A stretch of 64,000 nucleotides of DNA from Romanomermis culicivorax (taxonomy: Eukaryota > Nematoda > Enoplea > Mermithida > Mermithidae), in assembly GCA_963922205.1 (NCBI GenBank), contig CAWUHX010000544.1:1-64000 (forward strand). Direction: 5' to 3'. Made by a program: the position numbers and the translations under genes. Positions 28,075 through 59,256 of this stretch are shown piece after piece. The notes under the pieces were generated by a model. That model made no database searches and was not told the origin of the DNA. It saw only the letters and a list, made by a program, of their open reading frames with translations. The number at the start of each line of letters is the position of its first letter. The first letter of the stretch is position 1.

Positions 28075-28236
28075 CACTTACTTCACTTTCACAAAATAGA
28101 GACAGCCAGATGTTCCTGTCACCTTAGTACTAAGCTTAAGCAGACAAGTGAGCCCCTCTCTATTCAGTTTGATCGAATAGCTTCACAGGCACGATTATCA
28201 GTCTTAGATACCTTACAGGAAGACGAATTCTCATCT

Positions 28237-30580: not shown

Positions 30581-30659
30581 AGCCGCCCGACGGGTGAAAA
30601 CTGTACATTTTGGTGTATATTTACGAGCACTGTTTGTAAATATTTTGCATATAATAAAT

Positions 30660-30742
30660 CGGGCCTTTGTGACACTACTGTTCTTAGGAATGAGCTAATT
30701 AATTGGGCCTTTGTGACACTACTGTTGTTATGAATGAGCTCC
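30660..30742 (+). repeat. 44-bp direct duplication between the acidic ORF and env-like gene
   Basis: GGGCCTTTGTGACACTACTG with its following GAATGAGCT block occurs twice in a row. An AATAAA lies just upstream at about 30654. The duplicated copy contributes the ATG at 30734 that opens the env-like frame. Confidence 0.7.
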
Positions 30743-37199: not shown

Positions 37200-37671
37200 T
37201 CAACGGCTCTTCTCTTCTTTACTTACGGATGGGGTCCTCCTCTTTCGAAGGACCGCCGTGCCCCTCACAGAATACCCACTCCTGCTCCATGCTGGAACAG
37301 CAGTGTAAAGAAGAGAATGAGCAGCGACCAATGCATCTAAACTAGGGTATTGCCTCACATCACAGGCGCATCCATGCGATAGCCTATATCTCGCCCCCAA
37401 AATTTTTCTTTTAGTCTCGTTACAGATTTCACAAATCAATCGACAATTGGCTCCTTCACCAAATCGATCAATTGACATCAGCAACTCTATGCATTTTTAA
37501 TTGACGTCAGCAACTCCACGCACCACCAACATAACTCCACGAGCCAAAACGCACCGAAAAACCACTGGACCATCGAGGGCCCGCCGTCACCCTCACCTGA
37601 ACATTTGACCTCCACGGACATGCCACATCCCGTATACAAGAACGAGGACGCCCTTTTTCGAAGGACCACCG

Positions 37672-39102
37672 TGTCATGTGCGGACGAATTTTGTCGAATG
37701 TCACGTGATTCAAATCACAATTTTTCATTGTTTTTCATCACGTTTTGTGTTACAGTAATTTACATTAATTTTGAGTTTCGTTTTTATAATTCTTACATGC
37801 AATTTATGTGTGTACTTTTATGTTTCATTTCTGTTTCATTTGCGCACATTTTATTTCCATTTCGATATATTATTTTCCATCGCACACGTAGACTATGGTA
37901 TGTACCTGCTAGTCAAGAATTTCAGTTGGAGATAAGCTCTCCGAGCTCATCACTGTAATTGGAGCACAACGTGCACCTCTTATCAGTAAAACTAGTGACG
38001 TTTCGCAATGTGAAACGACTAGTTTGAAATTCTCACTAGTTGATGTTCCTATGTTAAGCATGGAGAGTGAAAACTCGCCCCAATGCTTAACGTTGTGAAC
38101 TGGAAAATGTCTCTGTGACCACAGGCATCTTCTGCAGCGATTTCCGCCGAAGAAGTTAGCTTGGGGGAGTGTTAACTCCCCCCAAGGCATACTGTAGTTT
38201 ATGGAGCCCTTTAAAAGGGCATGTTTTGTTAGTTTGTCACTCTTTTCTTGGGCTAATTCATTGTTGCGTCTTTTTAGCCTGCGTCTTGCATTTGCCATTT
38301 GTCGTTATTATTATATTTTTTATATTGTCAACTGTGTTCGCCGCTCATCGAATAAATTTGCATATTTTCGCTTCCGACCTTCTTTTACGTTGCCTGCTAC
38401 AGTAACCCAACCTTTGGAGTTCACCACCCGTCGCGGTTGATCGAGAACCCCCGTCGCCCTCCCCAAGGAAATGCTTGATACCGCCTGCCTAAGGGCAGTC
38501 GCATTACCGCCTACGCCGAATCACTCTGGATTCCCATACCCGCTCACCACCGTCCGTAGGACCCTGCTTTGACCCTAGAACCGGTCGCCCAGCACCGAGT
38601 AATTTGAGAAGAGGATTTAGTGAGTCTTCTCATGGGTTATTATTGTTCAGGGTATATTTGTGGGTATCTCCCCTAAGCTAGTTTCCCTTGGAAGTACTCT
38701 CAGTTAAGAAAGCCCTCAGACCCTTAAGGTCAGGGCTAATAAGGGGATTTAGGTTAACAATGGGGTCCCCTACAGTACGCCATTCTGCAAATGGCACCAT
38801 CCCTCTTTCTCAGTGAATGAGGACTAGGGATTGGCACCCCTGACCCGTCCGCATTGTCCATTATTCTACAGCATAACCCAAGGACAAGGCCGAGGTACAT
38901 CATAGGTTTACCTGTGGTAGTACCAGCTGGGTTGGGTTCCGGAAGTAGATAACCTCAGGGAGCCACCCAACGGGGTCACAGCATGCCACTTCCAGTGACA
39001 TGACCATATTTCCTATTGGATATGGTATGGGTTTCCCATCAATGTGACTGATCACCAATTCAGTTAATGTGACATGGCTCCCAATTTCTACTTAATGTGA
39101 CA
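37672..39102 (+). repeat. 3' LTR of the 16.3-kb element
   Basis: 1431 bp, TGTCATGTGCGG to AATGTGACA, colinear with the 5' LTR, with TTTAAAAG near 38210 and AATAAA at 38351. The bases just upstream (CGAAGGACCACCG) are a poor polypurine tract. Confidence 0.9.
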
Positions 39103-39150
39103 CATGGAATACCAAAAATACCAAAAAAGCCAGAAAATACCAAAACCATC

Positions 39151-41175: not shown

Positions 41176-41609
41176 TTAAATTATGATTTAGATACATAAA
41201 ATATATAACAAGTAGTGATAAAACAGGTACTAGAACCCTCCTCGATTTTAAAACAAATTTCATAGAATTTTTTATTATCATGTCTGCTTTATGATGTTAT
41301 GTCAAAATGGGACTCGGTGTAGATGAAGAAATATATGAGAATTGAAAAGGACCTAATCAGCTACTTGCTAATTCCCCTAATCAGGCTGAAACCTTAGGTA
41401 GAAATAGTTCACAACAGTTTGGCCAATTTCAACAAAATGATCAGCTGCTTTTGTTCCAAAGAACTGCAGATGATCCGATAACACTCTGAGCACAAGTAAC
41501 TTCCAATCACTGGACAAAACCGAGAAGTCAGGTCGAGAATTGAGTTGTAAATGTAGAATTGCATGCAGGGGTGGTGCTCCTGAGATCGGAGGTCTAACCT
41601 GCATTCCCT

Positions 41610-43040
41610 TGTCACATTAACTGACTTTGGAGCCATGTCACATTAACTGAATAGGTGATCAGTCACATTGATCGGAAAACCTATACCATATCCCGTAGGA
41701 AATAGGGCCATGACACTGTAAGTGACATGCTGTGACCCCATTGGGTGGCTCCCTTGGGCAGTCAGTGCAGGAACCTAACCCAGCTGGTACTACCACAGGA
41801 AAACCTATGGTGTACCTCGGCCTTGTCCTAGGGTTTAGCTGTAGAATAATGGACAAGGCGGCCGGGTCAGGGGTGGCAATCCCTAGTCCCCATTCACTGA
41901 GAATGAGGGATGGTGCCATTTGTCAAATGGCTTACTGTAGGGGATCCGATTGTCAACCTAAATCCCCTAATTGGCCCTGACCTTAAGGGTTCGAGGGCTG
42001 TCTCAACTGAGGGTACTCTCAAGGGAAAACTGGCTTAAGGAGGATTCCCACAAATATACCCTCAACAATAATAACCCCTGAGAAGACTCACTAAATCCTC
42101 TTCTCAAAGTACTCGGCACTGGGTGAGGGGTTCAAGGGTCCAATGTGGGTCTTATGGACGTCGGGGGAAACAGGTTCAGTAATCCAAAAGCGATTCGGCG
42201 TGGAGGTTAGGCGAATGCGAGTCACTGGGCGATGGTATCAAAACGATCCTCGGGGAGGCGACGGGGGTTCTTGATCAACAGATGACGGGGTAAACTCCTA
42301 AGGTTGGGTTACTGTAACTGGCAATGCAAGGGAGACCCAATGCGAATATGTAAATTTATCATAGAGGTGGTGGATGCAGGCACAATATGCAAATTTATAA
42401 TAAAAACGATGCAGGCAAATGCAGGAACACAGGCTGTAAAAATGCAAAGATGATTAGGCCCAAAAATGAGTGCAAAATTAACGAAACAAGTCCTTTTAAG
42501 GGGCTCTGTAATCTTCAGTATCCCTTGGGCGAAGCTAAGACACACCCAAGCTAACTTCTGCAGTAGAAATTGCTGCAGAAGATGCCTATGGTCACATAGA
42601 CATTTTCCAGTTCACTACGTTAAGCATTGGGGCGAGTTTCACTCTCCATGCTAAACATATGAACATCATCTAGTGAGAACTTCCAACTAGGCGTTTCAGG
42701 TTGGGAAATGTCGCTAGTTTTTACTGATAAGAGGTGCACCTTGTGCTCCAATTACAGCGATGAGCTTGGAGAGCTTATCTTTAATGGAAATTCTGACTAG
42801 CGGATTTTATACAGTAGTCTACGTGCGCATCAAAAAATAACAAATCGTAACAGAAATAAAGGCGGGAAAGTAAAACAGAAATGAAACACAAAAAATACAC
42901 ACAGAAAATGCATGTAGAAATTATAAAAATGGGACGCAGAATTAATGCAAGTTACTGTAGAACAAAACGTGGCGAAAAACATAATGGAAAAATATGATGG
43001 GAATCAAGTGACGCTGGGCGAAATTTGTCGGCACGTGACA
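41610..43040 (-). mobile_element. solo LTR of the 16.3-kb element family, inverted
   Basis: 1431 bp matching the LTRs at 22770 and 37672 in reverse complement, with TGTCA/TGACA ends. CCCT directly precedes (41606-41609) and follows (43041-43044) it, a perfect 4-bp duplication. No internal region remains, as expected after LTR-LTR recombination. Confidence 0.85.
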
Positions 43041-44001
43041 CCCTCTGCTGCAAGATCGATCAATAACGTCCAGGTGGGGATGTTGTATTTGGGCGAATTC
43101 TCCACAAATAGGATAACCAATAAATAAAATATAATATGGCCAGTCAGGCCGCCGATTTTCTTTCACAAAATAAAAATTAAAACACAATGACCAAAGACAT
43201 AAATGTTCGGGCCTTTTATGTGTGACGTCTATGCAAATTGGCATCAATATAAAATGTGTTGGCTTTGGCTATTTCTTCAGAACCATGAGATAGACTATGT
43301 CCATTCCATCCCAACAGTTATATATGTTTACAGCTTTTGGTTAGTATTGAGCAATGACAAAAGTTCTTGCTGGTCAAAGAATCTCTCCTTTTTGGTGGTT
43401 ATCTGATTTCGGAATTTAACTTGGATTTTTCAGTCCAAAACGGTTTTGATTTCTGTTGTTTCGACCTAATTTATCAAAAATGTTTGATTTCCAGTTGATG
43501 TTTTTGGTTTTTTTGTTTGTCGGCAGTAATTGAAATATTACCACATTGCTCAGGTTCCTGGATGATATACACATTTATACCAGTCTATTTAACAATAATT
43601 GAATTTTTCTCTGAAAAAAACTTGGTATATTATGGAAAAAAATCTGAAAAACCTGCATTTGAAAAAACTGCTGTACACCCTGTCCCTGGCCTCTTATAAA
43701 GGTGTGTGCAGACGTTGCATTACAATAGAAGTTATATACTGTGTAATGTCATTTACAATGCATGAATATACACAGAGTTGGAAGACTGTGGTCATTCAAC
43801 CAGTTCACGAATGTGTTATTTTTAGTGAGTAAAGTCCTGCAATGGAATTATGTGTTGTCTTGAAATATTGTAAGATATGTAAGGTAGTGAATCATCTATA
43901 CTACCAAAAATGGTGCGGTGTATAATAATTATAGGTAAAAATGAGGGCCACTAAACCTAAGTTTACCCAGAGTTGCTAAAACCCTAAGAAGGGCCCTGAT
44001 C
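43041..44001. other. non-coding stretch between LTR elements
   Basis: A/T-rich, no ORF above 80 codons, no repeat recognised. Nothing further can be supported. Confidence 0.4.
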
Positions 44002-44005
44002 CTGC

Positions 44006-44612
44006 TGTTATGTTTACTTCTCTGCTTAGATCCGAAGATGTCAGCAATATGACCCAAGTCCTATTGGCTTGTACTCAATCGACTACTGTAGGTCACTCAA
44101 AGGAGCTTCCTATTGGCAATCAACTGAACACAGTGCAACAGTCCTTAAGCAGAAATAAACACAACCTTCAGTCACTAATAAGTAACTGGAAACTCTAACT
44201 CTTGCAATCGAAGGGCACTCAGGGTCCCCCCAGATGCCTCCTAAAGGTTTACACAAATACACAAAAACTCACTATGATAATATCCAAAGAAGCTGGGGCT
44301 TTACCTTGGCTTGGCTCCCGTGTAATGCGACTCCCTCCTTCCGCTTAATGCGCAAGTAATAATAAAATAAATAGTAAATAATAATATTACTATCAATATG
44401 CAAATTTGGGTGTCGGGCTGTCGACGTTGCCTTTATTGGGCGAAACAGAACAATACAATTTTATAACGGACGCGACTCGCCCACGACACACCAAAATTGC
44501 GAAAGTAAACACGAATGAATATTTCTTCCTTTTTTGGTGGAATCGTAACTTTGTCGATTCACCAATTTTGCATAGATGTGGGATTGCTACTGCCGTAAGC
44601 ACATCCCCAACA
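44006..44612 (-). repeat. 3' LTR of the 15.2-kb element
   Basis: 607 bp, in element orientation TGTTGGGGATGTG to CATAACA. Retains more CpG sites than the 5' LTR. Confidence 0.9.
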
Positions 44613-45517: not shown

Positions 45518-45870
45518 TTATTGTTGCTGCCCGCCGCCTTGCTGCTGGCCTTGTTGATGACCTCCGCGACCTCGGAATGCACCACGAGGGTGTTGTCCTC
45601 GGTATATACCTCAGCCACCAACATAACCAGCTCTGCCCCTGTTCGGATTGTTAAAATGAAACTGGCCTGGTTGGGCACCCCTTCCCCGTCCTCCACGAGC
45701 TCCCCTAGCACCTTGTGGATGCTGTATAGGTTGCTGTTGTTTCGGAATGGTTCCGGAGGCTTGCCCAGTGCCAGTACTGGGGCCAGCGAAGACCTGGTTG
45801 GCTATACCAACTGTGGCTCCTTGACCACCAGTTTGACTAATTGCGAGTCCGGGTGCCCAAAAGTCTGTCC
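45518..45870 (-). pseudogene. Arg/Gly-rich tail belonging to the exonuclease ORF, out of frame
   Basis: One frame downstream of the long ORF reads as Gln/Pro-rich then RGG-box sequence (ARGARGGRGRG, then FRGRGGHQQG) and ends QQQ at TAA 45518-45520, broken only by a TGA at 45611-45613. RGG tails bind RNA. The gag of the same element has a similar Gly/Arg-rich end with YVGG. A frameshift near 45860 probably separated this tail from the main ORF. Confidence 0.5.
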
Positions 45871-48800
45871 CGCATCGTTCTGAACTTTGCTAAATTTAGC
45901 AGTAGTCGGAGGACTTGGGCTACCTGACCTTTTGACATCCATCTCCGCCACTTGTTGACTGTAATTATACATCACCAAGCGATAGGCAGTCTTAAAAACA
46001 TCCGAAGCAGTGGCACTCCGATATTCCTGTAACAGCATGATGTTTGCAAACACTTTGGCTGAGACTGATCGTTTACCGATCTGCTCAGCCGTAAGTGGGG
46101 CATAGTCAAGCATAAGGAATATCATCATACACAAGTATCTGACTGCTGCAAATACAACACTCGCTCGATATTCCGTGAGCCATTCAAGAACAATTTCACG
46201 AATGATCCTATCCCATAGTGGCTCTGGAATATTTCGCGAGTCGTATAAAAATCCTCCTTGGACATCAAACTGTGGCTGATACAGTTTGTATATAGTCCTG
46301 ACCGCTTTATTGACCATCAGCCAAATCTCCGGATCTTCAAACTGCTCGTCGCAGAAATAATTAGCCAATTCCGGTGTAGCAAAAGAAATTGGACCTCTGG
46401 CTCTACTTTTATCTTTGGTAACTTGCCAAAAATCCAACAATACATCCCGGAATAATTCCACCGTCATTTCTGGTGTTTGTTGATTTGGGTCAACAGTAAC
46501 CAGAGTTAACAGCTTTATTTTTCCTGGTGTAAAGATTTGAACTTTTTGTCCTGCAACCTGTGGCTTGCTAGGAGCTCCCTGCACCTTAGGCTGACGCCGT
46601 CCGGAAGCAGAGGTGTCCGTAGCCTGCGACACAAATTGCGTGGACTGACTCGTTGCCATAGATAAAGTACCTGTAGAGACAGTCTGCGACACAGGAGTAG
46701 TTGAAGATACGGTGGTCACGGATACCGTTGCTGAAGCCGGAGCAGAAGTTTTGGCAGGTTTCGGCTGCGTAACCTTTGCAGGCTGCGCAATTGCCTTTTC
46801 TACCTTTTTCTTCTCCTGAGGGGCTTTTGTTTTTCGTTTCTTTTTCAAGTTAACGAAAATTTGCCTATCATTCAAACCTTTTATTTTCATATTTTTTATT
46901 GCCTCAGCAGTATAGTATCCGGGAACACCTTCTTTATCCCAGGTCAAGGCTAAGACTTGAATTTCCTTATCTTCTTCAGCCAGCCGGGCCGCTAGCTCTT
47001 GTGGTGTTTCCACCACAGTATGGCTAGGTGTCCCTGCTGTCTGTTCCTCCTCCTTTTTCTTTACACCTTTGGCATCCATGTATTCGCTAATATAAGCTTG
47101 CTCATACACGTTCTGCTCATCCTGGGCAATCAGAATTTCTTCCAACTGCGCTTGACTTTCTACGCTGGACAAGTACTGACTCGCATCCATAGATGTTTGT
47201 ATCACTTGTGGCGTAGGTAAGCCAGGCGGCGGTGGCAGCATTTCCGTCTGCAGCTGCGTCACAACTTGTGGTTGCGGTTGCAACTGCGTGACAGAAGGTG
47301 CTGTCATCGCAGATTCGGCTACTTGGGGGTCGGCGATCGAAATATACAATAATGCGTCTTCATCATCAACCTCCTTGCAGCTTTCCTCTCCCAGGAGTGC
47401 GGAATTATCCTCATCCTCACTCTCCAATTCCATGACGTCCTCGTCCACTAGACCCGTCTGAACTGTGGGTTCATTATCAGGGTCCAGTATATCAGATTTC
47501 GTCCTGAAATCGGATTGTTTGGTTTGATTACCGTATGAATAGGTAACCATAGGTAATTCCGACGGCAGAGGCCTCCGGTGAATACATTTTTCAGGAAATT
47601 CAATAGTATACAACGGATAATCAGCCGGTATACATCTAATCTGACCCGTTTGAAGAGTAGGCGTGTCTGGTGATAGGCCATATCGCAGCGACGGGGTTTT
47701 ACTACCGAATTCGGCATAGTAGAATCTGACATAGAAAAAGCAGTTGGCCCAATAATCCTTGTTATGGGTTATATTGTCCTTTGCTTTTTCTGTCAAAATT
47801 GGAGAGCCTATTTTGTCGCGCAAGCGCAACCGAATAGGCATAAAGCCAAACCTATTTTGCCAGGTCGTAACCCTTTTGCCTTTTACAGCATGTTCAGGTT
47901 CCGTTGGCGGTAAAGATGCTACTAGGTCGTAATTCTGTAAAACCCTGTCGTCGGTCTTCCATGCCATCTTCTTTATTAACTCTGAATCCTCCTTCGAGTA
48001 GGATTTGAGGAAATTATAATTCAATAATTCCCTCAGTATGTAATCGTACTCGGCACGGCTATGAGGCCAGAAAACAAAGAATGGTAGAGGAATTAGGTTG
48101 CATGCCTTTTCCAACGCAGGAAACTTTGTTGAGTCCATGACATGCTCGTAATTCCTCAAGTCCGCCATCCAGTGATCTCTGTCATACTTAGCCATACCGG
48201 TGTCGATTTCCACTGGTTCGTAGCAGTCCATTCCGAGTTGAAACGATTGAAGCTGCTTCGACCAGTCCTGTCGAGGAGTTTTATTCATGGCAAGACCGGC
48301 TGTGATATACCACACAACATCTACAGGATCCGTCAATTTGAAAAACGAAACCCCTTGCAACATTTCTGTATGCAGTCGGTTTATCACCTCGTTTGTTCTA
48401 TTGACCTGTTGCTCCATCGTATCCATGTCCTCCGGATCACTTACGTCTTCCCACTGATTCACCTTCTTTTTGCTTGGACCAGCTTTTAGCGCCTTGGGAT
48501 AAACCCCAGACAGTAAAGTGTGGTCCGTAGCTTTAGCGGGATTTTTTATATCCGCAGGACATGAATATTCCGGCAAGTCATTATGAAATTGTGTAGCCCA
48601 CCTGGCCATTACCTCTTGCCGCATCATGTGGTAAACCTTGAACAACTGCCTTTTTACGATGTCCTTCTCATCTACGAAGTTTCGATCCTCGAACCCCGTT
48701 AGGTCTTGAGAGTACACCGTATAAAAGCGGAAGGCCAAGGTTTTCACTTGGGCCGGCGATAAAATATCATGGGGGTACGTTGCCGTAACCCCACTTAATT

Positions 48801-49580
48801 CACCGCAAAACCCGTAGTGAAAGAACCCCAAAAATACGGCAATTGAATAATAGGCGTCTAGGCCAGCATACACAATTTCTGTGTCTTGAATCTTGGGGGC
48901 CAAGAACTTTTCTCGAATCTTTTTGTCACCGAAGTCGCATTGATATTTGCCGACATCAGCCAAGTAAAATTCGGTGAAAAGTCCTTTTAACCCAAGGTTT
49001 TCAGGACACAATCCTAAATCACGAGCGTGATTGGCCATGGGCCCCGTCATCAATCTGACGCAAATTTCACAGTCCCAATATTTTCCAAATCCTTGGAGTA
49101 TACGGGCCTGTATAATTTTCGTCTTATCATGAGCCGAGGCCCCTGACCCGGATCCGTAGACGTTCAAAATTGCAACCAGATCGTCCACAACTTTGAAACC
49201 GACCAGGAAACGATCCACCGATGAAAGGAATGAAATCAAAAGATCCCATTCCTGCGGCTTCAATGTTGTAAGGTCGATAACAAAGCTGGAACCATCTATG
49301 TGTGCAAATGACACCAGCCTAGCGAACTCTTTCCCTTCCGGGTTCTGGATCGCTACCTTATAAGGTATAATACATACCTCGGTCTTCTTGACCTTTTCTA
49401 CGTCGAATCCGACAACGCCTAGCCCCCGAAACTGGCTTGTGGCCAATTGCTTCAGGATTGGTTCGACGTTGCTGCTGTGGACCCGTTCGGGTTCCATTGG
49501 TCGCTGCGGCCAATAACCCATCGCGCCGGCGAACCATTGTTCGATCTCTCCGACGCGGACCAGACGCTTGATGTTATAGT
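45802..49580 (-). CDS. long accessory ORF with DEDDy 3'-5' exonuclease domain
   Basis: 1239 codons from ATG 49521 without a stop; the frame stays open upstream to a TTTTTGATTTTTAG splice-acceptor-like site (AG at 49582-49581), suggesting expression from a spliced subgenomic RNA. Residues 33-230 read as an RNase D/WRN-type exonuclease: GFDVEK (D40, E42), LVGFKVVDDL (D114), the NLGLKGLFTEFYL helix and IVYAGLDAYY (Y218, D222), all the catalytic residues of the DEDDy class. Beyond lie an unrecognised globular region, an acidic stretch (DEDVMELESEDED), Gln/Pro-rich sequence, a KKKRK basic cluster near residue 890, Ser/Thr-rich sequence and a helical C-terminal domain. It lies between integrase and 3' LTR, where env is found in other elements. 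It is far better preserved than the gag-pol next to it. Enzymatic activity is inferred. Confidence 0.8.
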
Positions 49581-49582
49581 CT

Positions 49583-50713
49583 AAAAATCAAAAAGAATTT
49601 GCCCCTTGACCCTTTACAAATCAGGCATTAGGCCACCACCACCAAATAAATAATCAACTTTGACCGGCACCAAATTAAGAAAAGATTTAGCGTGGGGAAA
49701 AATAAATTAATAAGTGAGGTTAGGTGTCAAAGTCATAAAGTAAGCAGGCCCAGTGGTTAACGCAAATGCTACACCAATTTTTCAGGAACCTCACATCTGC
49801 ACCACTTTTCGCTTCTCGACGTCGGCCGCCGTCAATTTACCACTTACCCTAGCCATAACTTCACGCCTCGGTACCAAAATTAAATAGTGAATAAATAACC
49901 AATTAAGGTTTTAATTAATCCAAGAAATAAATTTAGTAAACCAGGGGCTTTAATAAAACCAAAAAGTAAATGCTTCGGAATCGGATCCAAGGTAAAAACC
50001 ATTAGATTTTGGCTTTTTAGGGCCGTAAATCCATTAGGTTTTTTCTTTTCACCTATCCTAACATTTTTAGAAACTTTTCTTCGAACTCGTTTTCCCCTTG
50101 GTTGGCCCATTCAGAAAATTGAGCATGAAGAAATCATTCCTAAGACACCTAAATGGGCGAATTCGTCCCACATACCAAGAAATAATTAAATAAAAACTTA
50201 CCGTCGGTCAAAAAATAGCGATTGTTTTGGCGGCCTTGTGGTTGGCCCGCCTTAACGTGGTCGGCGTGCGCGCAATAATTTCGCGCGAAAGGCGCGATGC
50301 CTAATTTCGACATTTAAAAATTTTTTCTTAAATTCGGCGTTGTATCTTCTAAAGTAAACAAAATGTTAAAGAACATTTATCGTTACTTCAATATCAATAC
50401 AATATACGAAATTACCAAAAATAATTTTATCGGGTCCTTGGGCTGGACGAAAAAATTTGTTCCGAAAGATTTGTGCGATGCGGAGCACAAGAAAAACACG
50501 ACTTTTGAAATTGAGAATGAAAATTGGTCGTAAACCTCCCCAAATGTAATCCCAAAATTTTAGCGTCGGGTGTACAAATTAACAATATTATTCTGAAAAT
50601 TTGACCCTTCGCTACACAAATTTAAGAAAGGTATCAAACGAATATAAATCGGTTAAATAACACAAAAAATAAAAATTTTATTCACATAAAATACATGTAT
50701 ACGGCATTTTCCG
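49583..50713 (-). other. spacer between integrase and accessory ORF
   Basis: About 1.1 kb without a convincing gene. A 76-codon frame (49880-50110) has a basic start and hydrophobic end but no recognisable features. A CGCGCAATAATTTCGCGCG near-palindrome lies near 50269. Confidence 0.4.
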
Positions 50714-52722
50714 CTAAAAATTTTTAGACACAGAAATAACGACCGGATGATCTTCGGTCTCCGCGAGATTTCCAGTTGCGTTAACTGGAGTATCCCGGAA
50801 GACATGCGACATTTCGTGTCGAGACCATCTGGTACCTTCGTATCGAAAGTGTTTTAGCCTACTTGCCGATACGACCTGCTTTTTAAGCGGGTTATTCCAA
50901 TGCGCTATTGTGAGCACATTGTCTTTCAATCTTTTGTCATCGATGATGATATATGGTCCTTGCCAAGGTAACCCCAATTTTTTCTGTCTGTCTACTTTCA
51001 ACAGAACCCAATCTTGATTTTTAAAACCAGAAGTTTTAATTTTGTTATCAAAATATTTCTTGCTGTCCTTAGCGGCTTTTTGTATGTTTTCGGCAATACT
51101 TTCGTACAAATTTGTAAGATGGGTAGCCAAAACATACTTATAAGCCTCATAGTCATTAGGCATGACTATTCTAAGAGCAGCAGTGAAATTGATACCAAAA
51201 TTTGCTTCATGCCCCCGCAGCAGTGAAAATGGCGAGCATTTCATTGCTGCGTGAGGTGTGGCATTATATGCAAATACCACTGCGCTGAGGTACCTTGGCC
51301 ATTTATTGTTATCCTCAATTGCAACTTTTCTCAGCTGCTTTATTAGAGTTTGGTTAAATCTCTCAACCATACCATTACCCTGTGGGTGGTATGCTGTTGT
51401 GAAAATTTTTCTGCACTCTAACAGTTTACAGACTGCTTTCATAAGATCTGAATTAAATCCAGATCCATTATCACTAAGAAGTTTTCTTGGGGTACCGTGC
51501 CTAAATATCACATGCTCTAAGAATGCATCCACTATGGTTTCAGCCGTCTGATCAGGAATCAATATAGCTTCAACCCATTTAGTGAAATAATCCTGAAAGA
51601 CAATGACATATGGGCGACGTTCCCTCAAGGGAGCAATCCCTACTATGTCCACAGACACAATATCGAAGGGACCCTCCGGTATAATGGGTATCAATGGGGA
51701 TATGGAGCTTTTACCGGGAGTAGCCACTTGGCAGACAGGGCAAAACTTCAACCAATTTCTGACATCTTTTTCAATGCCAGGCCACCAGAACCGCTGTTTG
51801 ACAATACCCAGAGTTCTTTTGAACCCTTGGTGTGTCATTATAACGGCTCCGTGATATTGGTGAAGAATGCTGTCTCTGAGGGAATTCGGGACCGCGATCT
51901 GATCATGGCCACGTCCCTCAGTTTCCCTATAAAGAACTCCGTTATCCTCATAGAATCCACTATGATACTTCGTAGTGCTTTTGACCCCTAATCTTTCCCA
52001 AATTGGGGTAAGATTAGTGTCTTCTTTTTGCAATTGAGCGATAACCTTTAGATCAATTGGATAATTGATCTTATCATCATCCTTCTCTTCACTTTCTCCT
52101 TCCTTCACCTCTTCAAACTCCTTTTCTCTATTCGGGAAAAGCCAAGCAATGTTTTCAGGATCATTTGGTACAGATGTACCCTGTTCTTGATTTTGTGCAC
52201 TCTGATCCTGAAGTTTTGCTTGTCTTCTAGTTGTGACTGCATCAACTACCGTAAGCTTCTGCATTTCATTTCTGCTCTGCAATATATCTTTGGTAGTTGG
52301 TGCAATATTGTCCTTTGTTACCGTCAATTCCTGGATATCCGTCAATTCCTTGGTCTGCTTGGGGACAATTTTTTCGTCTCTACTTTCAACTTCTTCGTCC
52401 CTCATCCTCTGAAATTGTTGTACCAATATTTGGGTTTCAATTTCATTGGTTTGAGTTCCGAAATTACGAAATTGAATTTTGAAGACATATTCCCATTTTG
52501 GTGGGTTTTTGTCCTTAGCGTCTTCGGGTTCATCTTTCCTTGAGAGAAAATCAGCCATTGCGTTTTGTCTACCGGGCACATACTCCAATCTATGATTAAA
52601 TTGATTTATAATGGAATACCATCTTTTCAATTTATCATTGGTTTGAGTATTAACTTTCATAGATAAAAGAGGTTTATGATCAGTTTTGATCAATACTTTT
52701 TGTCCAAACAGTGCAGGTAAAT
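50714..52722 (-). CDS. pol: RNase H C-terminus and integrase of the 15.2-kb element
   Basis: Frame of 659 codons beginning within RNase H (IKTDHKPLL, then GRQNAMADFLSR) after a frameshift from the RT frame near 52715. A charged spacer follows. Integrase shows the zinc module (HQYHGAVIMTHQG to FCPVC) and the catalytic core: Asp in VSVDIVG, Asp in SDNGSGF, Glu in GMVERFNQTL. A C-terminal domain with VLLKVDRQKKLGLPWQGP and a basic tail ends at 50714. Integrase itself is intact. Confidence 0.9.
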
Positions 52723-54204
52723 TTTAAGACCATAGATGACCGCTAGGCATTCTCGCTCTGTAGCACACCACTTCCTCTCGTCTTCCTTAAGGATTCGGCT
52801 GCTATAGGCTATTACCCATTGGTCATCTTTAGTCTTCTGATAAAGTACTGCTCCCAGTGCGGTTCCACTGGCATCTGTTTGGAGAATGAACTCCACAGTT
52901 CCATCCAAAACAGGATACCGTAGAAATGGCACTGAGGTGAGTGCTTTTTTCAGTTCCTCAAACGCTTGGCGATGTTCGTCTGTCGCTCGGAACTTCTTCT
53001 TTCCCGTAGTGGTAAGCTTATACAACGGTTCTGCAAGATTTGCAAGGTTTGGGATAAATTTCTTACACCATTGCAGTATCCCCAGAAATCGTTGCATACG
53101 CTTAACGCTATTGGGAAATTCGAATTCCGTAATAGCCTTCACTTTTTTCGGATCTGGTGAGATTCCATTTTCGTCCAGTATGTGTCCAAGAAAATGAACA
53201 CTTTTTGGAAGAAATTCGCACTTCTCCGGTTTAAGTGTTAGCTTTGCTTTCCGAAGAGCTTGCAAGACCAATTCTAAATTCTCCAAATGTTCTTCATAAG
53301 TCTTGGAGAACACAATGATATCATCAATATAAACCAGGCAGACTCTCAAGACTAGACCATGCAACACTCTCTCCATCATTCTCTGAAACTCTGCAGGTGC
53401 ATTTTTAAGTCCGAAAGGCATAACTTTAAACTGATATAGGCCTTCCTGACATATAAATGCAGTTTTCTCCTTGCTACTTTCCTCAAGTGGGACTTGCCAA
53501 TATCGAGACTTTAGATCCAAAGTGGTATAAAATTTGGCATTACCTAGACAATCCAAATAATCATCCATTCTAGGTATAGGATACCTGTCGTCCTTAGTAA
53601 CCTCATTTATACCTCTGAAATCCACGACTGGTCTCATGGAACCGTCCTTTTTCCCAACTAGGAAAAGTGGAGCAGCCCACGGTGACCGGCTGGGTTCAAT
53701 AACTCCTTTATCTAACATGTCTTGGACTTGAGCTCTAATCCCTGATCTTTGGTTAATGGGAGCTCTGTAATAATGTTTTGCCACTGGCATTGCATTACCA
53801 GTATCAATTTTGCACGTAAGATACGGTGTTGTGGTTAAGGGATCATTGGGTAAGCTGAAAACATCCCTATATTTAGACAGTTTTGCCACAGCTTTTTCCT
53901 TTAATTCCTCATCAATATCAGCCTTGGAGATCATTTTATATAGCGCTTCCCTAAATGCCAATGCATCATGCATGGACATTCTGGGAGTGGCATTAAAATT
54001 ATCTTTCACACTAAATATCCCACAACTCGTACTCTGTACTTCTGATACTCCTGAATTTTCTTGTAATATTGAGTCACAGTAGCCTACAACCTGATTAGGT
54101 TGCAATTGGCATCCGGAACCCGTATTATTCGAAATCATCAGAACCCCGTTTACCATCAACCAGTGTGCTATCAACTCTGAATTTCTTTTCTTCTTTATTT
54201 CCAT
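52690..54204 (-). CDS. pol: reverse transcriptase and RNase H N-terminus of the 15.2-kb element
   Basis: 504 codons. RT shows VIEPSRSPWAAPLFLVGKKD, RPVVDFRGIN, FYTTLDLKSRYWQVP, MPFGLKNAPAEFQ and the catalytic YIDD (53320-53331), then FLGHILDENG. RNase H begins with LQTDASGTALGAVLYQ and ECLAVIYGLK before the frameshift. It overlaps the protease frame upstream by about 80 bases in a +1 relation; no clear slippery heptamer is seen, so mutation and programmed shift cannot be separated. Confidence 0.9.
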   Translation of the reverse strand: MEIKKKRNSELIAHWLMVNGVLMISNNTGSGCQLQPNQVVGYCDSILQENSGVSEVQSTSCGIFSVKDNFNATPRMSMHDALAFREALYKMISKADIDEELKEKAVAKLSKYRDVFSLPNDPLTTTPYLTCKIDTGNAMPVAKHYYRAPINQRSGIRAQVQDMLDKGVIEPSRSPWAAPLFLVGKKDGSMRPVVDFRGINEVTKDDRYPIPRMDDYLDCLGNAKFYTTLDLKSRYWQVPLEESSKEKTAFICQEGLYQFKVMPFGLKNAPAEFQRMMERVLHGLVLRVCLVYIDDIIVFSKTYEEHLENLELVLQALRKAKLTLKPEKCEFLPKSVHFLGHILDENGISPDPKKVKAITEFEFPNSVKRMQRFLGILQWCKKFIPNLANLAEPLYKLTTTGKKKFRATDEHRQAFEELKKALTSVPFLRYPVLDGTVEFILQTDASGTALGAVLYQKTKDDQWVIAYSSRILKEDERKWCATERECLAVIYGLKIYLHCLDKKY

Positions 54205-55168
54205 CTATGACCAAACAATTGAGATCTGTTTTAGACGATCGTTCCCATAATCTTGCCTTAATAAGCACATCAGTTCCGTGTGGTATGTATACTTTCGTAC
54301 ATGATACCACTGGAACCATTATACCTAATTGGCAGATCCTGGGGTATTGATCGTCTTCAGGACTTGAATGTACTATAGGTGCTTCCCCTATACAATCAAT
54401 AGCTTGTATATGACTCGCGTGATCTTTAGGTACAACACTTATAGCTTTCTCAACTCCATTAAGTTTCATGATACCTTTACCAAAATCTATCATCGCTCCA
54501 ACATCTGGATGTGCTAAGAAATCCGTTCCAATTATGAGATTTTCCTCCGCATTAGGAATGATTATGGCTTTCACCAAGAAAATTCCAAATTCACAATGCA
54601 TTTTGAATTGTATGTTACCATGTGCATGTACTACTGCACCGTCAGCAACAGTGACTTTTAGTATCTCAGGATATCCGGTATATTCTTCATCAAAAGCTTC
54701 CTTAAGAAACCATGAAGACATCACCGAACACTGAGCACCAGTATCCACTAAAGCCTTGGTGTTAGTATTACATACGGTCACATTAATGTGAAATGGGAGA
54801 GTTCGAGGGAATTTAGAAAACCTTAATCGTTCCTCCTGATTAGGAATTATCCCATGCTTGAACGCTTTTGTAACTTTTGAATAATCCTCTTTCATCATGG
54901 CACACTTCAATACTCCAGGCCATTTCATCTCACTAACACCTTGACCCGTAGTGGCAATGCTATTAACACTTCCAGCAGATCCCAACTCTGTCTGACTGGA
55001 CATGGATGGTTGACTACTGGAAATGGCTTGCACACTTGGGCTAGGGTTACTGATTTGAACCTGACCTTGAGGGGGAGCTGTGATCATCAGCTGTTGGCTA
55101 GGGGCTGGCAGTTGTGGTGCCATATAGAGTTGCTCATTCCGCAATCTATTCTGGTAATCAATGAATTG
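54125..55168 (-). CDS. PR: protease region of the 15.2-kb element
   Basis: Intact frame from the edge of the hAT-like insertion to TAA 54125. Pro/Gln-rich linker, then retropepsin with ALVDTGAQCSVMS and LIIGTDFLAHPD. It would cleave Gag-Pol. Its N-terminal linker is continuous in sense with the gag end on the far side of the insertion. Confidence 0.85.
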   Translation of the reverse strand, partial: QFIDYQNRLRNEQLYMAPQLPAPSQQLMITAPPQGQVQISNPSPSVQAISSSQPSMSSQTELGSAGSVNSIATTGQGVSEMKWPGVLKCAMMKEDYSKVTKAFKHGIIPNQEERLRFSKFPRTLPFHINVTVCNTNTKALVDTGAQCSVMSSWFLKEAFDEEYTGYPEILKVTVADGAVVHAHGNIQFKMHCEFGIFLVKAIIIPNAEENLIIGTDFLAHPDVGAMIDFGKGIMKLNGVEKAISVVPKDHASHIQAIDCIGEAPIVHSSPEDDQYPRICQLGIMVPVVSCTKVYIPHGTDVLIKARLWERSSKTDLNCLVIDGNKEEKKFRVDSTLVDGKRGSDDFE

Positions 55169-55176
55169 TTGATAAG

Positions 55177-56422
55177 CAGTGTTTTTTTTTGTACAACACC
55201 CCTTTGTACTTGTACAAAGATTGGAGTCAAAAGTCTTTGTACATTTTAATTTTTCTTTGTACAAAAAAATTTTCGTTTTGTAAATACTTTTTAGTAATCC
55301 TGAACCCAGTGATAATGTTGGTTTGAAATTCTTGAGCACTGAAAGGACAGGGAGGAAATCAAAACCACTGTTTTTTTCCACGAACTTTTTTTCACAAATG
55401 TGGAAAGGGGTCAAATTTTTTTTTCCACATGTGGAAAAAAAATTTTTTCGTCTTAAAATCCTCGTTTTTTTGGCTTAAAAATGCTCCCAGATGCTTTATC
55501 GCATTGTTTTTTAGCTTTTTCAAGCCTTCCAGTGTTTTTAGAGATTCATTAAAATTGAAGAAAAAATTGAAATGTTCGCCCTTAAAGCCTAATCTACAAG
55601 CATTGTGGAACAAATTTTCTAGCAAACTATCCAAGAGCATAATTGACTTTGAATTACATGAGAAATCGATGGTCGAGTCCCCTATGATGACAAGTGAAAG
55701 CCCAAAAAAGATGGTAATGTTTCCGGCGCCAAGCGCCGGAAATTTTTTTGGGTATGTTGACATTCTGGGATGCTGGAAAATCAATTTTCCGAACATTTAT
55801 TTCAAGAATTATATAGATTCCAATTTAATGTTCAAGAGTCGTAATTTCTAGAATTTTACTTGAAAAATTTTAAAATCTGTAATTTATTTGTAAACTCTCA
55901 TGAACTTGGTCGAAAATTATATGAGTAAGAAGAAGAGTATAAATTTCCGAAAGATATTTCCATGAAGCTTTTGAATTGATTTTATGTTAGCAAAGAAATA
56001 ATCGCATCATAAAGCATAGAGACTTGACGATTGATCTTTCTCAAAAGGAAAAAATGTGAATCTTCATTAAATATTATGATAAAATGTTGAAGATGACCAA
56101 TTAAAACATGAGATACTAAGTTTAAGATGATGAAAACTATTATAGATTAAGTGATAATTAAAAGTAGACATGATAAAAGCCGCGCCTCAGCTACTTAATG
56201 AATAATGATGATTATTAAAGTTATAACCGGCGCGAAGCGCCGGAAAATTTTGAGATTTGGACCTCCTAAAATGCACTAAAATGCATCTTTTCAATATGAA
56301 AACCCCAAATTTTCAATATGAAAACCCCCAAGAAAAAAATCTTTGTACATGTACAAAGATTGTCAAAATTTTTCTTTGTACAAGGGAAAAAATCTTTGTA
56401 GAGTACAAAAAAAAAAACACTG
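55177..56422 (+). mobile_element. CAGTG-ended hAT-like non-autonomous transposon, copy A2
   Basis: 1246 bp with ends CAGTGTTTTTTTTTTGTAC and GTACAAAAAAAAAAACACTG. The 8-bp target duplication TTGATAAG is perfect (55169-55176 and 56423-56430). It interrupts the 15.2-kb element between gag and protease, so it is the younger insertion. Subterminal repeats of CTTTGTAC/GTACAAAG occur at both ends, and GC hairpins at 55723-55739 and 56227-56243. 55380-55830 is closely similar to 8395-8830 in copy A1. No transposase. Confidence 0.85.
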
Positions 56423-56430
56423 TTGATAAG

Positions 56431-57361
56431 TATCATAATCCATAGTATCACCATAATAACCTATGGCATGAGCACCTCTACTGCTCCCGCCAACATATCC
56501 TCCTCTAAAGCCTCCAAACTGTTGCCTGAAACCTCTGTTTCCACCATATCGATTATCCCAATTACGTCCTTGTGCATTTTTCCATTGAAGGGTTTTACAT
56601 TCGGACGTGTCATGAGAGTTATTTCTTTTCCTGAACTCGTTTCCACCAGGTTTTTGGGGTTTACCCTTATTAACTTTGGCAGAAATTTCATTCAATTTAG
56701 CATCAGTCTTTTGGCTTATCTCCTGATAACACTGAGCCAACTTCGCAATCTCCTGTGATAACTTTGCTAGAACAGAATCACTGCTAGGTTCCTCAGGCTC
56801 TTTTCCTTTTTGGGGAGTAGTAGCCATTTGAGTCCCCTGTGAGTTATTCTCTTCTACAGAAGTATCGGAATCCTTCTTTTCTGACACTAGGATCGGGGCT
56901 TGCTTCTCTCTCCTTGCTTGCTGTCGCATAGCTTTATTTTGAAACTGCCTTTGTGGGGCATTGCCAAATTTATTTCTACCGACATAAGCCACTTCAGCTT
57001 GCCCTTCACCCATCGTCACCTCATTTATCACAATTGGAGATTCCGCAGTTCCTCTCTTTTTATAAGCAGCTGCATTCCGCTTATCAATCTTGTGCACATC
57101 CTCTGCTAGATCATGCCATGTTTCATACTTCTCTCTTTGATCTAGCAACTCCATCAGATACTCTTCAGATGCTTTATACAAAAAGGTATCAATTATGAAA
57201 CCATCTCTGAACTCTTTGGTCTTATTAGGATATAATCTATCTACTAGCACACTAATTCTCTTGAGGAATTTCACTGGAGCTTGATCAAATTCCTGCTTTA
57301 TGTTCATCAGCTCCCTTGTTTGCATACCGACATTTGAATCTGGAGCTTGCACTTTGAGCAA
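56431..57361 (-). pseudogene. gag: gag capsid/nucleocapsid of the 15.2-kb element, 3' part
   Basis: Capsid-like helical sequence (VKFLKRISVLVDRLYPNK, FIIDTFLYKASEEYL), a charged linker, a partial zinc-knuckle remnant (HDTSECKTLQ) and a Gly/Arg-rich end (GGNRGFRQQFGGFRGGYVGG). The frame runs into the hAT-like insertion at 56430. A frameshift near 57340 separates it from the upstream gag frame. Confidence 0.75.
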
Positions 57362-58643
57362 CTTCCTTCGGGCTTTTTCGTAACTTTTGAACCTTTTGGG
57401 AGTAGCTTTTGGTACACCCCCTTAGAAAGCGCTTGTAAGGCAGCCAGCTTCATTTTATCAGTAGTCTCTGAAGTAAATTCTGCCTCTAAATCATTTAGGA
57501 AGCTGAGAACTTGTGTCTCAGTCATGTCATCGAGGAGTAGCTTTGGCTTTATGGCCTTCACTATATCTGACACAGTAGGCTCCAATCCATCCACTGAGGA
57601 GTCATCAGAATCTGATGAATTTCCTCGTGTGGACTTTTTGGATCGTTTGTGCTTCGACGTAGTACGTTTGCTTTCCTTATGACTACCTGCTGCTTCCTCA
57701 TCAGCTTCTTGGAAAAATTGAGCAGCTATATCACTTGCTTGTTCTCAAACAGCAAGCGGTTCAGTTACCCGTTTTTCCGTAGAAACCTTTGATTTCACAG
57801 CAGGTTTGACTGTGAACTTTTGCTCTGACTCATCTGCTATCATCTGCCGTAACCTTTGGTCATTGGCAATACAGGTTGCAGACGTCGTTGGCAAAGTTCT
57901 ACACATATCCTGAGTTTGCAATGGTCTGTCTGTAATCCTACTCACCCGGATATCCCTTTCCTTTTGATCCAGGACGAATCTTTCCAATAGTCCTTGGACT
58001 CCGACCATCGAATCGGCCATTTTGTCAATTTTGACGTTTAGCCGTCGAATTTCGTCGTCCTTTTGACTCATTTCGAATCGTAAGTCGTCCAATGTATTGC
58101 GACGGTACTCATCCCAAATATTATCCATATTTTTGTTGACGTATTCGCGATGATACGTATCAAATCATTGTCGAGGTCGTCGAAAACATTCCTCTCTAAC
58201 TTGATCAAAGGGATCAATATGATCCTCGGCCAATTTCGGCCTTCTATCAATAGGCGCCAATAATTGAGCAAATAATTGAGATCTTCGGCAGTCAATAGTT
58301 CCTTTGCCGTGGCCATATTATTGATATTATTAGTGGCCATTATGGGCGCTATGGAAGTGGGAGCGCTTACTGGGTCCAATTTTACTTCAGCCCGCTGGCT
58401 TATGGCACTTGAGTCGGAGCCTTTCCGCTTGCTCATAGTATTAGATACCACGGGCAGTGGGAAAGATTTATCCGACTCACCATGCCTTACACCAGGCGGA
58501 GTCCTCGGTAAAGTCGTACCAGAGGCTAAATCCTCAGCATTTTTGGACATTTTGAGCCCTAAGTCTTTGTAAAAACCTTTAGGTTTTGTGACACCTCGGG
58601 TGACTCTGCGCTCTTCCGTATTGCAAGTGTCAGAAGCCACCAC
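57307..58643 (-). pseudogene. gag: gag N-terminal part of the 15.2-kb element (frameshifted)
   Basis: Three frames join in order: 58643-58068 (likely ATG at 58550), 58128-57745 and 57742-57307. Breaks are a frameshift in an A5 run near 58125, a TGA at 57745-57747 and a frameshift near 57340. The second part is a predicted coiled coil (MSQKDDEIRRLNVKIDKMAD), the third starts the capsid. The first frame begins inside the primer-binding region next to the 5' LTR. Confidence 0.65.
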
Positions 58644-58644
58644 T

Positions 58645-59252
58645 TGTTATGTTTACTTCTCTGCTTAGATCCGAAGATGTCAGCAATATGACCCAAGTCC
58701 TATTGGCTTGTACTCAATCGACTACTGTAGGTCACTCAAAGGAGCTTCCTATTGGCAATCAACTGAACACAGTGCAAACAGTCCTTAAGCAGAAATAAAC
58801 ACAACCTTCAGTCACTGATAAGTAACTGGAAACTCTAACTCTTGCAATTGAAGGGCACTCAGGGTCTCCCCAGATGCCTCCTAAAGGTTTACACAAATAC
58901 ACAAAAACTCACTATGATAATATCCAAAGAAGCTGGGGCTTTACCTTGGCTTGGCTCCCGTGTAATGCGACTCCCTCCTTCCGCTTAATGCGCAAGCAAT
59001 AATAAAATAAATAGTAAATAATAATATTACTATCAATATGCAAATTTGGGTGTTGGGCTGTCGATGTTGCCTTTATTGGGTGAAACAGAACAATACAATT
59101 TTATAACGGATGCGACTCGCCCACGACACACCAAAATTGTGAAAGTAAACATGAATGAATATTTCTTCCTTTTTTGGTGGAATCGTAACTTTGTCGATTC
59201 ACCAATTTTGCATAGATGTGAGATTGCTACTGCCGTAAGCACATCCCCAACA
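58645..59252 (-). repeat. 5' LTR of the 15.2-kb element
   Basis: 608 bp. On the minus strand, TGGTGGCTTCTGACACTTGC follows two bases after its end, a plausible primer binding site. Compared with the 3' LTR, at least six of about eleven substitutions are CG in the 3' LTR and TG or CA here. Confidence 0.9.
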
Positions 59253-59256
59253 CTGC

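What the first reader, a model, noticed from the sequence alone, without database searches (positions are those of the whole stretch)
45518..49580. A Ty3/gypsy element carrying an intact DEDDy 3'-5' exonuclease ORF in the env position
Seen: a 1239-codon uninterrupted ORF inside an LTR pair with a clean CTGC duplication, same strand as gag-pol, after integrase. Its first 230 residues contain D40/E42, D114 and Y218/D222 in RNase D/WRN-type context. Established: this fold trims 3' ends of RNA or DNA; animal members include WRN, Mut-7/Nibbler and Egalitarian, and C. elegans MUT-7 takes part in transposon silencing. Inference: the element captured a host exonuclease that may process its RNA or counter small-RNA silencing. 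The ORF stays open while neighbouring gag is frameshifted.
Basis: partly seen in the sequence, partly recalled or inferred. Interest (0 to 1): 0.88.

Follow-up and report, generated by a model that had tools for sequence, protein, structure and literature searches.

The report
Worm jumping gene carrying an RNA-trimming enzyme
A virus-like jumping gene with many copies in the mosquito-killing roundworm Romanomermis carries, where relatives may carry an envelope gene, a large protein with a domain predicted to trim RNA or DNA ends, and selection has preserved that protein; a similar arrangement has been reported from bdelloid rotifers.

Summary
A minus-strand Ty3/gypsy element (LTRs 44006-44612 and 58645-59252, 98% identical, CTGC duplication) has a third ORF after integrase (45802-49521). 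The host is the mermithid nematode Romanomermis culicivorax. ORF3 alone gives no meaningful Pfam, PDB or protein-database match. Intermediates from the same genome make the link: ORF3 matches a diverged genomic sequence (L099) over residues 29-231 (60.8 bits; best of 2000 shuffles 26.6), and L099 passes the curated PF01612 cut-off (E=7.7e-8). D40, E42, D114, Y218 and D222 are invariant across five aligned A, B and D sequences. The window ORF is not intact: 14 of 37 copies run to 1334 codons with an RGG/Gln-rich tail that a frameshift removed here. 63 of 66 checkable integrase copies have the domain in place. In integrase-selected copies, private variants are neutral while widely shared ones show purifying selection. 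Family B, 36% identical in ORF3, has the same architecture; another integrase lineage (C) carries a different DEDDy ORF. DEDDy ORF3s are known from bdelloid LTR elements, so this is a new variant of a known kind. The likeliest role is RNA 3'-end trimming, plausibly against host siRNAs. The role is inferred; no activity was shown.

The parts
58645..59252 (-). 5' LTR (608 bp)
   Evidence: 98.03% identical to 44006-44612; TG...CA
44006..44612 (-). 3' LTR (607 bp)
44002..44005 (.). CTGC target-site duplication, left copy
59253..59256 (.). CTGC target-site duplication, right copy
58629..58642 (-). putative primer-binding site TGGTGGCTTCTGAC, 2 nt inside the 5' LTR; the same letters in the one family B copy seen (L092)
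   Evidence: tRNA not identified
56363..58646 (-). gag region, broken into several frames in this copy; no Pfam match for the frame tested
   Evidence: a number of other copies have one open frame of about 2233 codons through integrase
55544..56289 (.). repeat lying inside the element between gag and protease; 81.5% identical to 8541-9292
54125..55474 (-). frame holding the aspartic protease
   Evidence: PF13975 E=2.6e-7
52690..54204 (-). reverse transcriptase / RNase H
   Evidence: PF00078 E=1.8e-40, PF17919 E=4.2e-25
50714..52693 (-). integrase, with a GPY motif
   Evidence: PF17921 E=4.7e-19, PF00665 E=4e-13; motif seen by eye in the translation
49581..49597 (-). 3'-splice-site-like TTCTTTTTGATTTTTAG; the frame is open and conserved from here, upstream of the first ATG
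   Evidence: kept in 12 of 12 printed A copies (one with an extra T), a similar site in 6 of 6 printed B copies
45802..49521 (-). ORF3 from first ATG to the premature stop (1239 codons; 1334 in 14 of 37 copies)
48772..49464 (-). DEDDy (PF01612-type) exonuclease domain, residues 20-250; D40, E42, D114, Y218, D222
45922..46551 (-). conserved C-terminal region, residues 991-1200, the most constrained of the four parts tested; holds a hydrophobic stretch at 1120-1138
   Evidence: shared-variant omega-like 0.023; 36-56% identity A to B in blocks of 50; hydropathy 2.16
45518..45830 (-). relic of the RGG/Gln-rich tail, out of frame in this copy and holding a stop

Best explanation
ORF3 is an element-encoded accessory protein of a multicopy Ty3/gypsy retrotransposon in Romanomermis culicivorax. 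It has an N-terminal 3'-5' exonuclease domain of the DEDDy (RNase D/WRN/Mut-7) type, a large middle region, a conserved C-terminal region and an RGG/Gln-rich tail of the kind that binds RNA. SHOWN: family membership through intermediates, invariant catalytic residues in the A, B and D sequences aligned, presence in nearly all copies checked, purifying selection, and inheritance together with pol since before the A/B split. INFERRED: it is made from a separate, probably spliced, mRNA, as env would be; it binds RNA through the tail and removes nucleotides from RNA 3' ends by two-metal-ion hydrolysis (the mechanism of the family, recalled). My preferred role is protection of the element's RNA from silencing by trimming host siRNAs, whose 3' ends may be unprotected in this species because HENN-1 and PRG-1 were reported lost outside clade V (about 40%). 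Next comes 3'-end maturation or turnover of the element's own RNA or cDNA (about 30%).
For: Homology chain: A to L099 BLASTP 60.8 bits over residues 29-231, against a best of 26.6 bits for 2000 shuffles of L099; E=3e-14 in a comparison with a handful of sequences, 5e-9 if scaled to a database of 1e9 residues. L099 to PF01612: E=7.7e-8, 32.8 bits against a cut-off of 23.6. Family B: PF01612 is the only Pfam match at E<=1 in 2 of 2 members scanned, E 0.0049 and 0.014. Profile A/B/D against C/E: hhalign E=2.1e-5 for one pair, probability 76.7%, across the whole domain with all motifs in register. Catalytic residues invariant in 5 of 5 aligned sequences, 2 A, 2 B, 1 D. Selection: in 37 ORF3-selected copies, variants in 4 or more copies show 24 nonsynonymous or stop of 139, 95.8 expected (omega-like 0.094; exonuclease 0.065; C-terminal region 0.023). 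In 33 IN-selected copies, codons 21-268, private variants are neutral (0.98) and variants in 4 or more copies give 0.283. RGG tail shared by A and B. No PRG-1 or piRNAs in R. culicivorax, HENN-1 with the same pattern of loss outside clade V (PMC4323106, passages).
Against: ORF3 alone matches nothing meaningful. Profiles of A/B and A/B/D do not find DEDDy structures significantly in the PDB: Psb28, unrelated, scores better than EXD2 for A/B (E 0.011 against 0.35); for A/B/D a transcription regulator (0.48) is ahead of EXD2 (0.73). Against a profile of six cellular DEDDy proteins, D scores only 2.0-4.0 bits, below A and B at 10.3-10.8. The structure model is useless (pLDDT 35). No activity, transcript, splice donor or substrate was shown; the one good donor in the window is absent from the 5 other A copies checked. 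Nothing in the sequence singles out siRNAs as the substrate.
Confidence: 0.6

Rival explanations
1. The exonuclease matures or recycles the element's own nucleic acids: it trims 3' ends of genomic or subgenomic RNA, the primer tRNA, or mis-paired cDNA ends (proofreading), inside the particle or RNP.
For: DEDDy enzymes trim structured RNA and ssDNA, and Rodriguez et al. 2017 suggest processing of retrotransposon RNA 3' ends (PMC5408684, passages). The tail looks RNA-binding. Selection on the catalytic domain.
Against: Most LTR elements do without it (recalled). Proofreading would be expected inside pol rather than in a separate ORF (inference).
Confidence: 0.3
2. ORF3 is a catalytically dead RNA-binding or RNA-localising protein, as EXD1 and Maelstrom are among DEDD relatives.
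For: Large non-catalytic regions; the C-terminal region is the most constrained; RGG tail. Inactive DEDD relatives are noted in PMC5408684 (passages).
Against: All five metal-binding/catalytic residues are kept: each in 31-33 of 33 IN-selected copies and in 35-37 of 37 ORF3-selected copies, and invariant in the 5 A, B and D sequences aligned.
Confidence: 0.15
3. ORF3 is an unusual envelope/structural protein and the exonuclease resemblance is accidental.
For: It sits in the env position. No Pfam match for the ORF alone. One hydrophobic stretch near the C-terminus (residues 1120-1138 in A, mean hydropathy 2.16; 1.79 at the like place in B) could be a membrane segment; no dedicated predictor was run.
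Against: The significant homology chain to PF01612 and the conserved catalytic residues. A membrane segment would not exclude an exonuclease.
Confidence: 0.03
4. A host gene with introns was captured recently or the element inserted beside it, so ORF3 is not part of the element.
For: Some of the short PF01612 matches may be host exons (not resolved; the six places fetched and compared all resembled A, C or each other).
Against: 63 of 66 checkable integrase copies carry the domain at the same place (30 by coincidence, 33 of 36 probed). Family B carries the same ORF architecture at 35-36% identity (7 of 7 fetched) and has a 61-67% identical integrase (2 copies).
Confidence: 0.03

Closest known systems
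DEDDy ORF3 of bdelloid rotifer LTR retrotransposons (Juno1/2, Vesta2/5; Rodriguez, Kenefick and Arkhipova 2017, PMC5408684; abstract, section 3.1 and passages seen)
   Same: LTR element with a DEDDy RNase D-like exonuclease ORF downstream of pol in the env position; acquired at least twice in that group; recognised by remote homology.
   Different: Nematode host. Pfam shows no dUTPase in the PR and RT frames here; the bdelloid Juno, Vesta and TelKA families have one. ORF3 here has 1334 codons (B: open frames of up to 1398) with an RGG/Gln-rich tail; the size of the bdelloid ORF was not looked up. Clear purifying selection here; [quoted passage not shown] Sequences were not compared: the bdelloid ORFs were not available here.
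Terminons / Athena Penelope-like retroelements (PMC5408684, PMC6431247; passages seen)
   Same: Retroelement carrying a DEDDy exonuclease ORF.
   Different: Different RT class, endonuclease-deficient, telomeric; not LTR elements.
Cellular DEDDy exonucleases WRN, EXD2, RNase D, Mut-7/Nibbler, Rrp6 (PF01612)
   Same: Exo I-III motifs with Y-x(3)-D, in the same order.
   Different: Very divergent, with a longer Exo II-III spacing and no direct significant match; TE families A-E lie apart from the six references used in the tree.
Egalitarian, EXD1, Maelstrom
   Same: DEDD domain joined to RNA-binding functions in RNA transport or small-RNA pathways (recalled; EXD1 and Maelstrom also in PMC5408684 passages).
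   Different: EXD1 and Maelstrom have lost catalysis; ORF3 keeps the catalytic residues.

Membership tests
Ty3/gypsy LTR retrotransposon | LTR pair, short target-site duplication, PR-RT-RNase H-IN order | tested here: met
Ty3/gypsy LTR retrotransposon | RT tree placement within Metaviridae | not tested
   order of domains and Pfam matches only
PF01612 / DEDDy exonuclease | Direct match of ORF3 over Pfam's curated cut-off | tested here: not met
   no PF01612 match at E<=1 for the whole ORF or E<=10 for its pieces
PF01612 / DEDDy exonuclease | Significant homology to a sequence that passes the cut-off, over the whole domain | tested here: met
   A to L099 60.8 bits, residues 29-231, best of 2000 shuffles 26.6; L099 PF01612 E=7.7e-8
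PF01612 / DEDDy exonuclease | Catalytic D-x-E, D, Y-x(3)-D in order | tested here: met
PF01612 / DEDDy exonuclease | RNase H-like DEDD fold | tested here: inconclusive
   single-sequence model pLDDT 35; genome loci are not on that tool's list of allowed inputs, so no alignment was sent
PF01612 / DEDDy exonuclease | Metal-dependent 3'-5' exonuclease activity | not testable with these tools
   -
Bdelloid-type DEDDy ORF3 (Juno/Vesta) | DEDDy ORF after integrase in an LTR element | tested here: met
Bdelloid-type DEDDy ORF3 (Juno/Vesta) | Sequence homology to bdelloid ORF3 beyond the exonuclease domain | not testable with these tools
   no bdelloid sequence was found in what I could search; protein searches with ORF3 gave none
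Retroviral-type env expression | Splice donor and acceptor joined in a subgenomic mRNA | tested here: inconclusive
   acceptor-like site conserved in A and B; the window donor is absent in 5 of 5 other A copies; no other strong donor in 3 A copies and 1 B copy scanned

The most novel reading that the evidence does not exclude
Gypsy elements of an early-branching nematode that lacks piRNAs, in a part of the phylum reported to lack the small-RNA-protecting methylase HENN-1, encode and maintain under strong selection an RNA-binding 3'-5' exonuclease that trims host siRNAs: a transposon-encoded silencing suppressor. Two or more element lineages (A/B, C) carry such ORFs in the same genome.
Probability: 0.3. 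Interest if true: 0.85.

Novelty: new variant of a known kind. Interest (0 to 1): 0.62.

Why it matters
Among the papers found here, DEDDy exonuclease ORFs in the env position of LTR elements are described only from bdelloid rotifers. Here the same kind of arrangement occurs in another phylum, in dozens of copies, in two related families and with a further exonuclease ORF behind the integrase of a distant lineage, with clear purifying selection on the catalytic domain. That makes the question of what an exonuclease does for a retrotransposon testable in a worm whose small-RNA system is reduced. It also shows that profile searches of a single ORF can miss such an enzyme unless relatives from the same genome serve as stepping stones.

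Tried and rejected
Direct searches of ORF3 gave nothing meaningful: Pfam, NCBIfam, PHROGs, PDB sequences (best an alcohol dehydrogenase at E=0.75), 5.8 billion proteins twice (9, 26), viral contigs (12). A single-sequence AlphaFold model of residues 1-260 was useless (pLDDT 35), so no fold search was run. A 6-sequence DEDDy profile gave 7.5 bits for ORF3 residues 1-260 (2.1 for the full ORF) against 4.8 for the best of 2000 shuffles; 1035 of the 2002 sequences, the two ORF3 entries included, got a score. Supportive but weak.

A strong splice donor in the window's gag start (CATG|GTGAGT, right phase) looked like an env-style donor. It is absent in 5 of 5 other A copies fetched for that region and was rejected. 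Of the two B pieces fetched for the same purpose, L092 shows the gag start and L093 gave no match to the leader. A consensus scan printed no donor above its limit near the gag start in three A copies, and one weak one in B.

Selection measured on copies chosen by ORF3 score is biased (private variants 0.60); it was therefore repeated on copies chosen by integrase (private variants 0.98). L052, L053 and L057 were dropped from that count because the domain is absent, interrupted or displaced there.

A count of family B copies and a search for further families with a B protein did not complete by the genome search tool. A tree of the domain rests on 13 short, very divergent sequences and does not settle the origin of ORF3.
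Full report
WHERE IT IS. The window lies in an assembly of 359,112,060 bases in 595 contigs. The published version 2 assembly of Romanomermis culicivorax has 359.1 Mb in 595 scaffolds (PMC10879605, passages). A UniRef protein of that species matches a family from this genome at 86% identity in the aligned part (21% of the query), and its last 100 or more residues read, by eye, the same as locus L076. The host is therefore R. culicivorax, a mermithid nematode that parasitises mosquito larvae.

THE ELEMENT. On the minus strand, LTRs at 58645-59252 and 44006-44612 (98.03% identical, 11 mismatches and 1 gap) enclose gag (broken), a protease frame, RT/RNase H, integrase and ORF3. The ends are TG...CA, flanked by CTGC on both sides. 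The element is 15.2 kb here, including a repeat at 55544-56289 that also occurs at 8541-9292. A number of the listed integrase copies lie in one open frame of about 2233 codons; here gag-pol is in pieces.

ORF3 IS A PART OF THE ELEMENT. The genome search listed 37 ORF3 copies (37 of 4436 first-look candidates were scored, so this is a lower bound and a selection of the best), at 96-100% identity to the window ORF, the window itself included; 23 of 37 have no stop inside the match. It listed 67 integrase copies (67 of 8801 candidates scored). Of these 67, 30 coincide in place with the ORF3 list; 36 others were probed with 751-base pieces and one runs off its contig. Of the 36 probed, 33 have the exonuclease region in place, one has a later part of ORF3 there (L057), one is interrupted (L053) and one has none (L052). 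So 63 of 66 checkable copies carry the domain in place; of the 33, 14 have a stop or a broken codon within it.

THE WINDOW COPY IS TRUNCATED. Of 37 copies, 14 have an ORF3 of exactly 1334 codons from the ATG, ending in a tail rich in Gly, Gln and Arg (RGG type). In the window a frameshift near codon 1222 ends the ORF at 1239 codons, and the out-of-frame tail relic also holds a stop.

IS IT AN EXONUCLEASE? ORF3 alone finds nothing meaningful in Pfam, NCBIfam, PHROGs, PDB sequences or protein databases. A PF01612 search of the whole genome gave 116 matches at E<=1 out of 119 candidates. Seven of the weak ones (E 0.04-0.63) lie in open frames of 1232-1398 codons. All seven were fetched and are family B: their ORFs match ORF3 over nearly its whole length (one is shorter) at 35-36% identity, E 0.0, and PF01612 is the only Pfam match of the 2 members scanned, at E 0.0049 and 0.014, below the curated cut-off. 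Family D closes the gap: of six further PF01612 places fetched, L099, L100 and L104 match ORF3. L099 does so over residues 29-231 with 60.8 bits, where the best of 2000 shuffles reaches 26.6; the E-value is 3e-14 in that small comparison and 5e-9 when scaled to 1e9 residues. L099 passes the PF01612 cut-off with E=7.7e-8. In an alignment of 2 A, 2 B and L099, 33 columns are invariant, and the five catalytic positions D40, E42, D114, Y218 and D222 are among them. Family C, with PF01612 at E=1.7e-13 and 5.1e-11 for the two members scanned, aligns with E (C/E profile) to A/B/D over the whole domain, hhalign E=2.1e-5 for one pair and probability 76.7% (A/B against C alone gave 4.8e-4 and 32%). The C profile finds WRN (E=5.3e-6) and Mut-7 homologues in the PDB. 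Against this, profiles of A/B and A/B/D did not find a DEDDy structure significantly (best: Psb28, E=0.011, and a transcription regulator, E=0.48; EXD2 at E=0.35 and 0.73), D scores poorly against a profile of six cellular DEDDy proteins (2.0-4.0 bits), and no usable model was obtained.

SELECTION. In the 37 ORF3-selected copies, variants carried by at least 4 copies comprise 24 nonsynonymous or stop changes of 139, where 95.8 are expected if the same kinds of change fall at random on matching bases (lowest of 1000 simulations 73; omega-like 0.094; 0.065 in the exonuclease domain, 0.085 in the middle, 0.187 in the linker, 0.023 in the C-terminal region). Those copies were chosen by protein score, which biases the test: private variants gave 0.60. 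In the 33 integrase-selected copies, codons 21-268, private variants are neutral (105 nonsynonymous or stop of 147 against 105.5 expected, 0.98), variants in 2-3 copies give 0.54, and variants in 4 or more copies 0.28 (16 of 46 against 30.1; 0 of 2000 simulations as low). Copies therefore decay freely after insertion, while the lineages that go on jumping keep ORF3. Shared variants count sequences and not independent events, so these are not tree-based estimates. Catalytic residues in the 33 copies: D40 31, E42 32, D114 33, Y218 33, D222 32.

ARCHITECTURE AND HISTORY. A and B share the N-terminal exonuclease (38-50% identity in blocks of 50), a middle region, a fast linker, a C-terminal region (up to 56%) and an RGG tail (32-53% in its blocks). 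The C-terminal region holds one hydrophobic stretch (residues 1120-1138 in A, mean hydropathy 2.16; 1.79 at the like place in B), so membrane contact is not excluded. The B integrase is 61% (L090) and 67% (L089, C-terminal part) identical to that of A, so ORF3 has travelled with pol since before A and B split and has evolved faster. Family C is an ORF of about 600 codons; in the three copies examined for it (L075, L079, L081) it follows an integrase 28-35% identical to that of A. LTRs and RT of C were not examined. In a small tree (13 sequences) A, B and D group together (UFBoot 100), A with B (90), C with E (93), and the six cellular references form their own side (89; FastTree 0.896); long branches make this a lead only.

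EXPRESSION. Conserved coding sequence begins upstream of the first ATG, directly after a 3'-splice-site-like TTCTTTTTGATTTTTAG (49581-49597), and the 6 B copies printed have the same layout without that ATG. In the 36 of 37 A copies found by pattern, the two commonest variants of the 20 codons before the ATG (in 17 and 16 copies) are synonymous; of the five rarer variants in 2-3 copies three are synonymous and two are not. A spliced mRNA is likely, but the only good donor seen is private to the window copy among the 6 compared.

HOW IT MAY WORK. The best reading is an accessory RNA-binding 3'-5' exonuclease. Two features favour RNA as substrate: the RGG tail and a place outside pol. Sarkies et al. 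2015 report no piRNAs and no PRG-1 in R. culicivorax, only an RRF-3-type RdRP in clade I, and for HENN-1, which methylates small-RNA 3' ends, the same pattern of loss outside clade V (PMC4323106, passages; the passages do not name R. culicivorax for HENN-1). In such a host, siRNA 3' ends may be open to trimming, so a silencing-suppressor role is attractive, but it is an inference. Own-RNA processing is the main rival.

WHAT IS KNOWN. Rodriguez et al. 2017 described DEDDy ORF3s in the env position of bdelloid LTR retrotransposons and in Athena/Terminon elements, and discussed RNA 3'-end processing and a silencing link (PMC5408684: abstract, section 3.1 and passages; PMC6431247 passages). My searches of the held open-access library listed no paper that reports this from nematodes (listings, of which one search showed 15 of 33; passages of PMC6338049 and PMC3985635). 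The library lacks most subscription papers, so this is not proof of absence.

VERDICT. A real, selected exonuclease ORF3 in nematode gypsy elements: a new variant of a known kind, with the copy in hand truncated and the function open.

Noticed in passing
window 28075-36639, + strand: Another Ty3/gypsy-type element has, between gag-like frames (28075-29010; no Pfam match for the one tested) and protease/RT/integrase, ORFs resembling a viral fusion glycoprotein (PF24664 Monjiviricetes_fusion, E=2.3e-8 at 31480-31971, over the cut-off; 4e-4 at 31734-32834, under it). An env-like gene upstream of pol would be an unusual order; copies were not examined.
   Followed up: partly
whole genome; L074-L081, L101, L103: Family C: many of the 116 PF01612 matches look alike (profile positions 34-169, open frames of about 600 codons); three copies examined follow an integrase of a distant lineage. 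A second population of DEDDy ORFs.
   Followed up: partly
L099, L100, L104 (family D) and L102 (family E): Further DEDDy families, 21-30% identical to A and about 33% identical to C respectively; whether they are ORF3s of elements is unknown.
   Followed up: partly
window 22760-24207, 37661-39110, 41603-43041: Three related repeats of about 1.45 kb (81-92% identical); the third is inverted relative to the other two.
   Followed up: no
window 20446-20979, - strand: A frame with an ISXO2-like (DDE_Tnp_IS1595, E=1.9e-19) transposase domain.
   Followed up: no
P0001 (UniRef, R. culicivorax): A deposited gene model with PF00929 and PF01612 domains appears to fuse another exonuclease gene with pieces of a family C ORF; it looks like transposon sequence annotated as a host gene.
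   Followed up: no
window 58629-58642 and L092: The putative primer-binding site TGGTGGCTTCTGAC is the same in the window copy and in one family B copy, two bases inside the LTR, and does not match a tRNA I could name.
   Followed up: no
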